In this document: piece by piece, positions 19,919 through 22,800 of the stretch
Layout: the number at the start of each line of letters is the position of its first letter
Numbering within the stretch: the first letter of the stretch is position 1
From: Rudaea sp. 3F27F6
Lineage (GTDB): Bacteria; Pseudomonadota; Gammaproteobacteria; Xanthomonadales; Rhodanobacteraceae
NCBI RefSeq assembly: GCF_005503555.1
Contig: NZ_SCNG01000001.1
Location: 1,736,001 to 1,800,000, forward strand
DNA length: 64,000 bases
Reading direction: 5' to 3'
Notes under the pieces: model-generated
The model's input: only the letters and a program-made list of their open reading frames with translations
Told to the model about the DNA's origin: nothing
Database searches by the model: none
Position numbers and translations under genes: made by a program

Positions 19919-21922
19919 CTAGTTGCTCGGCACGAAGGTCCATTGCTGTGCCGGCGCGCCGTTGTCGGTCCAGATGCGCAACTGCGTACCGTGCGTGGTC
20001 GAGCCGTTCGGATCGTCGAGGATCAGCGAGCCCGACGCCTGGTTCATCATTTTGAACTTGCCGCCGCCGACCGGCATGATCATCCAGTTCTGGTTGGCGT
20101 TGTTGGCGCAGCCCCACAAAGTGACCAGATTGCCGGCCGTGGTGCTGCCGCCGGTGTTGTCGAGGCAGAGGCCGGAATACTGGTTCTGCAGGCTGTACCA
20201 GCCGCTGCCTTTCGCATGCACGGTCCAGTTCTGCACGGACAGGCCATTGCAGTCCCACAGCTCGGCGCTGGTGTTGTTCGTTGTCGCCCAGCCGGTGTCG
20301 TCGAGGCACAGGTTCGGCGCCTGCACGCTGTGCACGGAATAAGTCGCGCCGTCCGTCAGCAGTTGCTGCAACGTCCACTGCTGCGGCGCGAGGCCGTTGT
20401 CGGTCCAGATCTGCAGCTGAGTCCCGTGCGTGGTCGAGCCGGACGGGTCGTCGAGAATCAGCGAACCCGAAGCCTGATTCTGCAGCTTGAAGCTGCCGTT
20501 GCCGAGGTCCATGAACAACCAGCTCTGGTTGGCGTTGTTCGCACAGCCCCACAAGGTCACCTTGTTGCCCGGCGCGGTGCTGCCGCCGGTGTTGTCGAGG
20601 CACAGGCCCGTAGCCTGGTTCTGCAGCGAGAAATAACCGCCGCCCTGTGAATGCACGGTCCAGTTCTGCACCGGATAGCCCGTGCAGTCCCAGAGATCGG
20701 CGCTGGTGTTGTTCGTCGTCGCCCAACCGGCGTTGTCGAGGCACAGGCTCGATGCCTGCACATTGCGCAGCACGTAGGTGGCGCCGTCGGTGGGCAGGCG
20801 GTTCCACGACTCGGTGGCGAAGTAGGTGTTGCACACACCGTTGTTGTAGTCGGAGGCGAGTTCGAGAATGCTCGATCCGTCCGTCGCCGGCAGCAGGGCC
20901 GACGAATAATTCGGGCAATAGTTGTCGTACGGATTCGGCACATGCACGGGCGCGTTGATCGTGTACCAGTTGCCGGTGCCGTCGACATTGGTGTTGACGA
21001 AGAGCACGTTGCCGTTGGCCGCGGACACCTGGCCGTTGCTGTCGTAGACCATCTGCCCGGTCAGAATGATCGCGCCGTTGCTCGACAGCGGCGACGGCGT
21101 CCACTTGTTCAGCGGCGTGTGTTCGAGATACTGGCCCGACGCGGTCTGTATCCTGGTGCCCATGTCGTTCGGGTTGCCGAAATTCCAGCCGTCGGTCGAG
21201 ACGCGCGAGAACGCCGTGCACGCCGCGGGCCCGCACAGTTCGTTGGTCATGAAGTAGTGCCCGTTCGGCAGCTTGCTGACCGTGATCATGCCGGGCCGGT
21301 CGGCCTGGATGGTGCTGCGTATCGTGTCGGTCTTGTCCTGCCAGCTCGTGCCGTTGTAGCTGCGCATCTGCACGAGCTTCTGGCTGCAGCACGGATCGGT
21401 TTCGTCCGACCAGAACGCGACGAGCGCGCCGTCGCTGGCGATCTCGAATTCCGGTTCCCAGAGGCCGTGCGCATTGTCGCCGCCGACCGCAGGCATGCTG
21501 TGATAGCTCCAGGTAACGCCCTGGTCGGTGCTCGTGTAGACCTCGATCGCCGGCGTGCTGCCGTAGAAATACGAAGCCGACGACAGCAGCGTCCCCGCGG
21601 CGAGCGCACCGACCGCCTGCGGCATCTCGAACAGCGTGGCGCAGCAGCGCTCGGTGCTGCCGGACGCGGTCGGCACGGTGCTGATCTGGCTCCAGCTCGC
21701 GCCGTTGTCGTCGCTGCGGAAGATGACGCCGTTCGTGCTCGCGATGAGCCGTCCGTTCGATGCGGGCGGCCCGTGGGCGAGACGCACGACGCGCGGATAC
21801 AAGGTGCCGCCTTGCAACAATGTTCCGCTCGCCGCATGCGCACACGACGTGCAGAGCGCGATAAGGAACAGGAGAATAACCAAGGCGATCGAGTCTGCTG
21901 AATTGGATTTCAAACCGGTCAT
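19919..21922 (-). CDS. Secreted sialidase-fold glycosidase (GH93-like) with two ricin B-type lectin domains
   Basis: The protein has 667 residues with signal peptide VILLFLIALCTSCAHAA. Residues ~35-380 form a sialidase-type propeller with Asp boxes (FRSDDNGASWSQ, YTSTDQGVTWSYH). Candidate acidic residues include those in LWEPEFEIASDG. Fungal and bacterial GH93 exo-1,5-alpha-L-arabinanases share this fold; a true sialidase is less likely because I do not see a convincing arginine triad. Residues ~383-525 and ~526-667 are two beta-trefoils of about 140 residues with QxW motifs (VQNWTV, NQSWLF, PQQWTL and their second-copy equivalents). Such CBM13 domains bind galactose- or arabinose-type glycans. 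The upstream terminator implies its own promoter. Confidence 0.8.
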   Translation of the reverse strand: MTGLKSNSADSIALVILLFLIALCTSCAHAASGTLLQGGTLYPRVVRLAHGPPASNGRLIASTNGVIFRSDDNGASWSQISTVPTASGSTERCCATLFEMPQAVGALAAGTLLSSASYFYGSTPAIEVYTSTDQGVTWSYHSMPAVGGDNAHGLWEPEFEIASDGALVAFWSDETDPCCSQKLVQMRSYNGTSWQDKTDTIRSTIQADRPGMITVSKLPNGHYFMTNELCGPAACTAFSRVSTDGWNFGNPNDMGTRIQTASGQYLEHTPLNKWTPSPLSSNGAIILTGQMVYDSNGQVSAANGNVLFVNTNVDGTGNWYTINAPVHVPNPYDNYCPNYSSALLPATDGSSILELASDYNNGVCNTYFATESWNRLPTDGATYVLRNVQASSLCLDNAGWATTNNTSADLWDCTGYPVQNWTVHSQGGGYFSLQNQATGLCLDNTGGSTAPGNKVTLWGCANNANQSWLFMDLGNGSFKLQNQASGSLILDDPSGSTTHGTQLQIWTDNGLAPQQWTLQQLLTDGATYSVHSVQAPNLCLDDTGWATTNNTSAELWDCNGLSVQNWTVHAKGSGWYSLQNQYSGLCLDNTGGSTTAGNLVTLWGCANNANQNWMIMPVGGGKFKMMNQASGSLILDDPNGSTTHGTQLRIWTDNGAPAQQWTFVPSN
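19925..20776. repeat. Tandem duplication of the lectin-domain coding unit
   Basis: Two adjacent ~425-bp units (about 20776-20348 and 20347-19925 on the minus strand) encode near-parallel lectin domains. Long stretches are almost identical at DNA level, such as the parts encoding GWATTNNTSA and SLILDDP, which indicates a fairly recent in-frame duplication. Confidence 0.8.
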
Positions 21923-21975: not shown

Positions 21976-22012
21976 AAAAAAAGAGCCCGCGGTCACTCCT
22001 TCACCGCGGGCT
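21976..22012 (-). terminator. Rho-independent terminator after the cysteine-rich peptide gene
   Basis: Reading the minus strand, AGCCCGCGGT (22012-22003) pairs with ACCGCGGGCT (21993-21984) around a 9-base loop, and a run of seven T follows (21982-21976). It should end the transcript carrying the glutaredoxin and cysteine-rich peptide genes and isolates the lectin-enzyme gene. Confidence 0.85.
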
Positions 22013-22077: not shown

Positions 22078-22296
22078 TTAGTTGGTGCAGGATCTACTGC
22101 ATGCGCTGAAAGTCGCATCGCACGCAGCGAGGCAGCTCGCACTGCCTCCTGTGTTGTTGCAGCTCGCTTTGCACGAGTACCAATTCACACTGCAGGTGGA
22201 ACAGGAATATTGGGCATGCGCCAACGAAGAAGTCCCCGCGCCCAAGCCCATGGAGAAGCAGATTGCCGCCAACACACTGAGCGAACGAAGTCGCAT
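22078..22296 (-). CDS. Small secreted peptide with eight cysteines, unknown function
   Basis: The ATG ending at 22296 has the ribosome site AAGGAGA and gives 72 residues. Residues 1-28 are a clear signal peptide cut after SSLAHA. The ~44-residue mature part holds eight cysteines spaced C-x2-C-x6-C-x3-C-x8-C-x3-C-x6-C-x3-C, in effect two copies of a Cx(2-3)C-x6-Cx3C unit. Spacings of 7 and 4 put the cysteines on one helix face, so a disulfide-pinned helical hairpin is likely. I recognise no family. The gene lies 99 bases after a membrane-anchored glutaredoxin and before a strong terminator, suggesting that enzyme acts on it. Alternative: a metal-binding peptide or toxin-like bacteriocin. Confidence 0.7.
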   Translation of the reverse strand: MRLRSLSVLAAICFSMGLGAGTSSLAHAQYSCSTCSVNWYSCKASCNNTGGSASCLAACDATFSACSRSCTN

Positions 22297-22340
22297 AAAT
22301 CTCTCCTTATCAAGCCGACGGCTCCGTGTAGGCCACGACC

Positions 22341-22419
22341 CGGATGGACTGGAGCCGACACGTCCATCCGCACCCGAGCAGCGGGCGCGCGCCATTCAGG
22401 GATGGCGCACGCCCGCTGC
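22341..22419 (-). promoter_or_regulatory. Two strong hairpins in the leader of the cysteine-rich peptide gene
   Basis: One hairpin pairs 22402-22419 with 22378-22395 (18 bp, one mismatch, 6-base loop) and straddles the glutaredoxin stop codon. The second pairs CGGATGGA (22341-22348) with TCCATCCG (near 22363-22370). Neither has a T-tract, so they look like mRNA-stabilising or expression-setting structures and not terminators. Confidence 0.6.
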
Positions 22420-22800
22420 GGCTAGAGCCTCGCGAACCGCGGTTTCGCGAAAGCCACGAATTTCCCTATCGCCGATGTAGATGAGCGGCACGGCACCGCC
22501 GCCGCGTGCGGAGAATTTCTCTTCTGCGGCTTTCGACTGATCGACTACATAGTCCGTGTAGGCGATTCCGTGTTCCGCGAAAAACTCGCGAGCTTTGCGG
22601 CAGTACGGACACGTCGAAGTCGAGAACAGAACGACGGATCGATTCGCTTCGGCGTACAAGCCGCTGAAATTGCCGTTCCGATATTCGTCCGCCGGAAACA
22701 CTTGCCGGTACGTCTTCTCCGCAAACGGCGCGCCGTAGAAGCCAACGGCAAATACCGCGGGGATCAATAGTGCCGTTCCGAATCTCTGCAACCACTTCAT
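22396..22800 (-). CDS. Membrane-anchored glutaredoxin (CPYC), probably periplasmic
   Basis: The ATG ending at 22800 is preceded by GAGGAAAG and gives 134 residues. Residues ~7-28 (FGTALLIPAVFAVGFYG) form one hydrophobic helix with K2 and R6 before it, so by the positive-inside rule the rest lies in the periplasm. Residues ~55-134 are a glutaredoxin: VVLFSTSTCPYCRKAREFF with the CPYC active site, the cis-proline loop AVPLIYIGD, and REIRGF. Ordinary glutaredoxins are cytoplasmic and use glutathione, so an exported one is unusual. It follows the TonB receptor by 102 bases and precedes the eight-cysteine peptide, a plausible substrate for disulfide shuffling. Confidence 0.82.
   Translation of the reverse strand: MKWLQRFGTALLIPAVFAVGFYGAPFAEKTYRQVFPADEYRNGNFSGLYAEANRSVVLFSTSTCPYCRKAREFFAEHGIAYTDYVVDQSKAAEEKFSARGGGAVPLIYIGDREIRGFRETAVREALAAAGVRHP

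What the first reader, a model, noticed from the sequence alone, without database searches (positions are those of the whole stretch)
22078..22800. Membrane-anchored periplasmic glutaredoxin beside an eight-cysteine secreted peptide
Seen: a 134-residue protein with one N-terminal hydrophobic helix, positive charges before it, and a CPYC glutaredoxin domain. 99 bases downstream is a 72-residue pre-peptide whose ~44-residue mature part has cysteines spaced C-x2-C-x6-C-x3-C-x8-C-x3-C-x6-C-x3-C. The pattern is an internal duplication that places cysteines on one helix face. Established: glutaredoxins normally work in the reducing cytoplasm with glutathione. Inference: the enzyme forms or rearranges the disulfides of the peptide, making a small dedicated maturation system attached to a glycan-uptake locus. 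I recognise no family for the peptide.
Basis: partly seen in the sequence, partly recalled or inferred. Interest (0 to 1): 0.72.

Follow-up and report, generated by a model that had tools for sequence, protein, structure and literature searches.

The report
Exported cysteine-laced peptides with own glutaredoxin
A bacterium and a range of its relatives carry a membrane-anchored glutaredoxin gene right beside genes for tiny exported peptides, mostly with six or eight cysteines and probably folded as two stapled helices, so the enzyme probably helps build their disulfide bonds.

Summary
In detail: a 134-residue N-terminally anchored CPYC glutaredoxin and, 99 bases downstream, a 72-residue Sec-type pre-peptide with the stated eight cysteines. 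The pairing is not local chance. In Lysobacterales, 34 of 38 distinct anchored glutaredoxins have a same-strand, secreted-looking Cys-rich small ORF within 1 kb, against 35 of 1596 control windows; among more divergent anchored homologues, 6 of 11. Gene order flips between groups. Of 65 peptide sequences, 58 share a Gly-rich signal motif, while the mature parts show 34 spacing patterns, all with 6 or 8 cysteines by the rule used and often mirror-symmetric. Two frameworks are predicted as two helices joined by a short turn. I read it as a module: exported, probably disulfide-laced helical-hairpin peptides plus a periplasm-facing glutaredoxin-fold enzyme that forms or edits their disulfides. The glycan-uptake link is not supported: five relatives have the TonB receptor without the pair in the flanks held. 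Disulfides, enzyme action and peptide target are untested, and some such peptides occur without the enzyme. Closest parallels: plant alpha-hairpinins (shape), sublancin/BdbB (gene logic).

The parts
22396..22800 (-). membrane-anchored glutaredoxin-fold protein, 134 aa
   Evidence: (PF00462 E 2.8e-14)
22720..22776 (-). most hydrophobic 19 residues (9-27), the presumed membrane helix of the glutaredoxin, with VGFYG
22600..22611 (-). CPYC active-site motif (residues 64-67)
   Evidence: C64, P65, C67 invariant in the 14 aligned sequences
22297..22395 (-). 99-base gap between the two genes; the pattern scan lists no intrinsic terminator on this strand here
22078..22296 (-). Cys-rich pre-peptide gene, 72 aa
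22213..22296 (-). Sec-type signal sequence with MGLGAG motif, cleavage expected after AHA
   Evidence: cleavage site by inspection, no signal predictor was run
22081..22212 (-). mature peptide, 44 aa, 8 Cys, predicted helices at residues 2-20 and 25-42
   Evidence: AlphaFold2 mean pLDDT 83.1, pTM 0.56, 7 sequences
21976..22012 (-). terminator-like G+C-rich stem followed by seven T, just after the peptide gene
   Evidence: fold; z -1.64 for the 81-base stretch; not listed by the scan, whose loop limit is 8

Best explanation
This is a two-part module found in Lysobacterales. Small peptides are exported by Sec; their mature parts, roughly 22-60 residues, mostly carry six or eight cysteines that staple two antiparallel helices into a hairpin. 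Beside them sits a membrane-anchored, periplasm-facing, glutaredoxin-fold thiol-disulfide enzyme that helps form, edit or de-glutathionylate those disulfides. Shown here: conserved linkage, Cys patterns, the shared signal motif, and predicted two-helix secondary structure for two frameworks. Inferred: periplasmic location, the hairpin packing, disulfide pairing (C1-C8, C2-C7, C3-C6, C4-C5 in the window peptide), and the enzyme acting on the peptide. For the peptides' job I commit, at about 0.35, to a released, stable bioactive peptide aimed at competitors: varied mature parts, a shared signal and several copies in Lysobacter suggest this; no target or immunity gene was identified.
For: Adjacency: 34 of 38 distinct anchored glutaredoxins (33 of 37 without the window's own) have a same-strand secreted-looking ORF with at least 4 Cys within 1 kb. 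Controls: opposite strand 3 of 38, random windows 35 of 1596, order-level glutaredoxins whose match covers only the enzyme domain 0 of 5 (all), glutaredoxin ORFs outside the order 2 of 61 and 0 of 27. Divergent anchored homologues: 6 of 11. Order flips while linkage stays. Reverse test: 13 of 16 genomes with a peptide-profile match also have an anchored glutaredoxin, against 30 of 397 overall by my count. All 65 peptides have 6 or 8 Cys; 21 are fully mirror-symmetric against a shuffle mean of 1.5, max 6. Cys lie on one helix face: mean R 0.79 against null 0.51, max 0.56. Two-helix predictions. The genome has DsbB. Passages of PMC12453122 mention periplasmic GrxC recycled by glutathione disulfide during DsbB-independent disulfide formation; a passage of PMC10344953 postulates a periplasmic glutaredoxin-like enzyme in E. 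coli.
Against: No chemistry is shown. Three genomes (G243, G300, G319, one genus label) have hairpin-type peptides but only domain-only glutaredoxin matches, and genomes of label g85 (Lysobacter-type) have peptides far from the enzyme, so the enzyme is not always beside, or perhaps needed for, such peptides. Four of 38 and 5 of 11 anchored enzymes have no detected peptide. Where 2klx and 4mja read GGCDD, this family reads RGF-x-E or similar, so glutathione use is uncertain. The DsbA/DsbB route could oxidise the peptides unaided. Models gave secondary structure only; packing and S-S distances were not seen.
Confidence: 0.66

Rival explanations
1. The peptide is a periplasmic metal-binding (Cu(I)- or vanabin-like) helical hairpin, and the anchored glutaredoxin keeps its cysteines reduced.
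For: Cys gather on one helix face. The top fold match of the window model is vanabin2 (E 5.9, not significant).
Against: Mature parts hold an even number of Cys in 65 of 65. Entry is Sec-type into an envelope whose genome has DsbB. Spacing varies more than one metal site should allow. Neighbours in other loci were compared by BLAST only, not annotated, so a metal-handling neighbour is not excluded.
Confidence: 0.12
2. The peptide is not a client but a redox partner or thiol carrier of the glutaredoxin in an envelope redox relay.
For: Close linkage, usually one peptide per enzyme.
Against: Frameworks change between genera (34 spacing patterns) and up to four different peptides sit within 1.5 kb of one enzyme (L088), unlike a fixed redox partner.
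Confidence: 0.08
3. Both genes serve one envelope process (for example stress or secretion) but the enzyme acts on other proteins; the peptide is folded by the general Dsb system.
For: Hairpin-type peptides exist in genomes without the anchored enzyme (genus label g19) and away from it in label g85; DsbB is present.
Against: Linkage survives changes of gene order and of peptide type; no other gene family of 110 aa or more occurs in over 6 of 27 long loci.
Confidence: 0.12
4. Part of the glycan-uptake operon.
For: Same strand and close to the TonB receptor in the window.
Against: Six window neighbours have no relative in the 27 other long loci; 5 of 5 other genomes with this receptor lack the pair in the flanks held.
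Confidence: 0.04

Closest known systems
Sublancin sunA with bdbB (Bacillus), and enterocin F4-9 with its thiol-disulfide oxidoreductase
   Same: A secreted disulfide peptide with a thiol-disulfide oxidoreductase gene beside it (passages read in PMC6391423, and PMC6606811).
   Different: Here the enzyme has a glutaredoxin domain on a membrane anchor in a Gram-negative order, export looks Sec-type, no exporter-sized gene is constant in the loci compared (ORFs under 110 aa, hence small immunity genes, were not compared), and the peptides show many Cys frameworks.
Plant alpha-hairpinins
   Same: Helix-loop-helix stapled by disulfides; 4C motif CX3CX4-20CX3C, 6C motif CX3CX3CX4-20CX3CX3C (passages of PMC11591084). 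The window peptide contains the 4C core; the Dyella silvatica peptide (L072, spacing 3-3-12-3-3) fits the 6C motif.
   Different: Bacterial, extra Cys pairs further out in the window type, no sequence-family match found, no activity known.
Twin CX3C / CHCH proteins of mitochondria with Mia40
   Same: Small helical hairpins with twin Cys motifs oxidised by a dedicated enzyme (search listing only: PMC3759932, PMC12114033; details recalled).
   Different: Different enzyme fold and compartment; Coa6 is only a chance-level fold match (E 10).
E. coli glutaredoxin 3 exported to the periplasm (Eser et al. 2009; paper not held; known from citing passages)
   Same: A glutaredoxin on the periplasmic side linked to disulfide formation with glutathione.
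   Different: Here it is natural, anchored and linked to a putative client; the GGCDD motif is replaced.

Membership tests
Glutaredoxin domain family (Pfam PF00462) | Profile match above the curated cut-off | tested here: met
   53.5 bits against 22.9, residues 56-113
Glutaredoxin domain family (Pfam PF00462) | CxxC motif and conserved Pro (cis-Pro in the fold, recalled) | tested here: met
   C64, C67 and P105 invariant in the 14 aligned sequences; cis geometry not tested. More divergent homologues keep two Cys with other inner residues
Classical glutathione-dependent glutaredoxin | GG-C/S-DD glutathione-binding motif (role recalled, not from a call) | tested here: not met
   Aligned position reads RGF-x-E or similar; 2klx and 4mja read GGCDD there, while the best PDB match 7c10 reads GFDRD
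Classical glutathione-dependent glutaredoxin | Activity with glutathione | not testable with these tools
   needs protein
NCBIfam glutaredoxin subfamilies (YruB, GRX_bact, NrdH) | Score above subfamily cut-off | tested here: not met
   YruB 53 bits against 88.55; GRX_bact 51.2 against 90; NrdH 32.1 against 85.75
Plant alpha-hairpinins | 4C or 6C motif CX3C(X3C)X4-20CX3C(X3C) | tested here: met
   Core CX3C-X8-CX3C in the window peptide, but with four further Cys outside the core; motif from passages of PMC11591084
Plant alpha-hairpinins | Helix-loop-helix fold | tested here: inconclusive
   Two helices joined by a short turn are predicted; their packing was not seen
Plant alpha-hairpinins | Common descent / sequence family match | tested here: not met
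   No Pfam or NCBIfam family above cut-off for 11 peptides; no significant match in PDB sequences
Disulfide bacteriocin with dedicated oxidoreductase (sublancin type) | Oxidoreductase gene beside peptide gene | tested here: met
Disulfide bacteriocin with dedicated oxidoreductase (sublancin type) | Dedicated exporter and immunity gene | tested here: inconclusive
   No other family of 110 aa or more in over 6 of 27 long loci, which speaks against a constant exporter; small immunity genes would be missed
Disulfide bacteriocin with dedicated oxidoreductase (sublancin type) | Antimicrobial activity | not testable with these tools
   needs peptide

The most novel reading that the evidence does not exclude
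A signal-guided maturation system: the glutaredoxin's Gly-containing membrane helix packs against the Gly-rich signal helix of the peptide precursors, so that one enzyme can fold many unrelated Cys frameworks. That would give bacteria a diversifying library of stapled-hairpin peptides, like venom or plant defence peptides, aimed at other organisms. For: the signal motif in 58 of 65 peptides and a spaced Gly motif in 33 of 37 enzyme helices, shuffle mean 16.9, max 25.
Probability: 0.15. Interest if true: 0.88.

Novelty: new variant of a known kind. Interest (0 to 1): 0.7.

Why it matters
A naturally membrane-anchored, probably periplasmic glutaredoxin with a likely client is not something my searches turned up: 'periplasmic glutaredoxin' is in 2 papers of the library (one read in passages, the other seen in the listing) and 'membrane-anchored glutaredoxin' in none; other wordings were not exhausted and most subscription papers are not held. 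A passage of PMC10344953 postulates a glutaredoxin-like enzyme of this kind for the E. coli periplasm. The peptides look like an unnamed, very varied family with a shared signal motif, so they are a ready set for testing how one enzyme may fold many Cys frameworks, and a possible source of stable peptide scaffolds.

Tried and rejected
Glycan-operon link: rejected. Third partner gene: among ORFs of 110 aa or more the largest other clusters cover 6 of 27 long loci, several clusters are the four Lysobacter loci only, and some are shadow ORFs (30 largest clusters shown). Single-sequence peptide search: of its 44 listed matches only those in G028 and G058, besides the window's own, fitted the eight-Cys pattern in the fetched loci; matches without a locus were not examined. 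TIGR04117 (radical SAM target) matches one relative at 16.3 bits against a cut-off of 50 and DUF6520 another at 17.8 against 25.4: rejected. Fold searches gave nothing significant. Promoter scan uninformative. Papers: no title or abstract start listed in searches describes this pair. A matching motif in enzyme helix and signal: not borne out.

Parity: a first, cruder cut of the mature part (51 ORFs) gave 6 Cys in 22, 8 in 20, and 2, 4, 4, 4, 5, 7, 7, 9 or 10 in the other 9; five of those nine are the ORFs dropped as noise and the four with 7, 9 or 10 had the cut inside or beyond the signal. The detector's own rule gives even numbers for all 65. Leftover detector ORFs are 26 even and 7 odd, but the 4-Cys threshold biases that. 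The 6 later peptides hold 8, 8, 4, 6, 8 and 6 Cys by my count.

Rows dropped: five of the 51 ORFs, and one opposite-strand ORF of the later set, were removed by a hand-made prefix list before the count of 65. The 65 are distinct sequences, some close relatives of each other. In '19 away' means found by the peptide search; three of them (L237) do lie beside an enzyme. L170 was kept as anchored by hand although its CxxC did not fit my pattern. Of 15 stretches fetched, L265 gave no glutaredoxin ORF, L262 repeats L097, and L268 and L269 match only in the enzyme domain; 11 were counted, among them L270 whose match starts at model position 17, and two near-identical pairs (L256/L257 with peptides, L266/L267 without).

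Full report
What is there. On the minus strand, a 134-residue protein (22800..22396) has a short basic start, one hydrophobic stretch, and a glutaredoxin domain with CPYC. Ninety-nine bases on, a 72-residue pre-peptide (22296..22078) has AHA|QYSC; its 44-residue mature part has eight cysteines in the stated spacing. A terminator-like stem with seven T follows the peptide gene.

Is the pairing real? Searching 99 relatives with each protein, the two hits met in G028 and G058, which bear two other genus labels. I then built a profile from 14 anchored glutaredoxins (A1) and searched named genome contigs (80 of 100 matches kept) and 397 order genomes (loci for the 30 best). Among 38 distinct anchored enzymes examined, window included, 34 have a same-strand ORF with a signal-like start and at least 4 mature Cys within 1 kb. 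Opposite strand gave 3 of 38, random windows of the same long loci 35 of 1596, and order-level glutaredoxins matched only in the enzyme domain 0 of 5, one of which (L047) also has a hydrophobic start. The four misses are L097, L174, L177 and L185. Glutaredoxin ORFs outside the order gave 2 of 61 and 0 of 27; several of these also have a hydrophobic N-terminus but do not match the anchor part of the profile. A later set of weaker matches covering the anchor, not used for the profile, gave 6 of 11; seven of these have an altered motif (CGGC twice, CPVC twice, CPAC, CDAC, CRVC), of which five have a peptide. Labelled genomes with the pair fall into 16 genus labels and 4 family labels (my count). 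The peptide lies downstream in Rudaea, Dokdonella fugitiva and several loci of family label f2, but upstream in Dyella, Oleiagrimonas and Lysobacter, so linkage survives rearrangement.

The reverse test. A profile of eight 8-Cys peptides (A2) finds 26 places in 16 of 397 genomes. Thirteen of the 16 have an anchored glutaredoxin, meaning a match that starts at or before model position 16, as 30 of its 397 genomes have by my count. Without the four genomes that I could identify as sources of A2 rows it is 9 of 12. The three without (G243, G300, G319) share one genus label and have longer hairpin-like peptides. In genomes G298 and G316 (label g85, Lysobacter-type), further peptides, some in tandem, lie tens to hundreds of kilobases from the enzyme. 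The enzyme is therefore closely linked but not strictly tied to such peptides.

The peptides. Among 65 distinct sequences (46 near an enzyme in the first set, 19 from the peptide search) there are 34 spacing patterns, and every mature part has 6 (38) or 8 (27) cysteines by the rule used; one peptide of the later set has 4. Twenty-one are fully mirror-symmetric, against a shuffle mean of 1.5 and maximum of 6. Cysteines in each half lie on one helix face: mean R 0.79, null 0.51, maximum 0.56; window halves 0.87 and 0.93. The signal carries [FLAMVIT]G[LMVIAF][GA] in 58 of 65, against a shuffled mean of 17.6 and maximum of 27. These shuffles ignore relatedness, so they show pattern, not exact odds. 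AlphaFold2 predicts two helices with a short turn for the window peptide (7 sequences, mean pLDDT 83.1, pTM 0.56) and for a Lysobacter peptide of another framework (8 sequences, 91.7, pTM 0.64). Packing and side-chain pairing could not be measured because no coordinates were available. Fold and sequence searches of the PDB found nothing significant; the chance-level rows include, among unrelated ones, vanabin2, Coa6, viscotoxin A3 and neurotoxin B-IV, which I recall as small disulfide-rich helical proteins.

The enzyme. C64, P65, C67 and P105 are invariant in the 14 aligned sequences. Where 2klx and 4mja read GGCDD, this family reads RGF-x-E or similar; the best PDB match, 7c10, also lacks GGCDD. 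By recall, GF-type sequences also occur in NrdH-type redoxins, so glutathione may not be its partner. Its membrane helix has a spaced Gly motif in 33 of 37 (shuffle mean 16.9, max 25), but the peptides' own motif only in 14 of 37, which is not more than shuffles give (mean 10.7, max 19). Flanking charges favour the domain outside the cytoplasm: 26 of 36 positive, 10 zero, counting the N-terminus. Whether the anchor is cleaved is unknown.

The surroundings. The neighbours include a TonB-dependent receptor, a GH43 protein, a BNR-like protein with ricin-type lectin domains (BNR below its cut-off) and an aldose epimerase. None of six neighbours has a relative in the 27 long loci, while the glutaredoxin query hits all 27. 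Five of 59 other relatives have the receptor, with the 390-residue neighbour beside it, and none has the pair in the flanks held. The pair looks like a small cassette placed in this locus.

How it most likely works. Precursors leave by Sec and the signal is cut. The cysteines meet an oxidising periplasm (DsbB is present), and the anchored enzyme at the membrane forms or reshuffles the ladder of disulfides. A passage of PMC12453122 mentions periplasmic GrxC making disulfides without DsbB and recycled by glutathione disulfide; a passage of PMC10344953 postulates a periplasmic glutaredoxin-like enzyme. Sublancin with BdbB is a known parallel for a peptide with its own oxidoreductase (passages of PMC6391423). 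None of this is shown for the present pair.

Novelty. The logic (peptide plus its own thiol-disulfide enzyme) is known. This enzyme class on an anchor, and this varied peptide family with a shared signal motif, I did not find in Pfam or NCBIfam (11 peptides and the enzyme scanned) or in the listings of searches. Hence 'new variant of a known kind', with a bolder reading given separately.

Noticed in passing
L063:8313-9007 (G000:C9, same genome as the window): A second anchored glutaredoxin (57% identical) with its own peptide of a different framework, 3-6-9-6-3-3-4.
   Followed up: yes
L235, L236, L238 (genomes G316, G298): Tandem 52-residue peptides ending in a short RPCC/IPCC 6-Cys core, with no anchored glutaredoxin in the 3 kb held; the same core sits beside the enzyme in L160, L165 and L172.
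   Followed up: partly
L224, L226, L229, L232 (genus label g19): Roughly 100-residue secreted-looking proteins with a 2-6-n-6-3/4 Cys core and a C-terminal tail, in genomes with only domain-only glutaredoxin matches.
   Followed up: partly
L256, L257, L260, L261, L263, L264, L270: Divergent anchored glutaredoxins with CGGC, CPAC, CPVC, CDAC or CRVC instead of CPYC; five of these seven have a Cys-rich peptide beside them.
   Followed up: partly
signal sequences of many peptides, e.g. L063, L064, L075, L089: A Cys often sits inside the hydrophobic part of the signal (CAFxFG, AFCFG), in some as LLAGC; most do not look like a lipobox, but it recurs. Not counted.
   Followed up: no
window 19919-21922 (-): A 667-residue secreted-looking protein with a BNR-like (sialidase-type) region below the Pfam cut-off and two ricin-type lectin stretches, next to a GH43 gene.
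   Followed up: no
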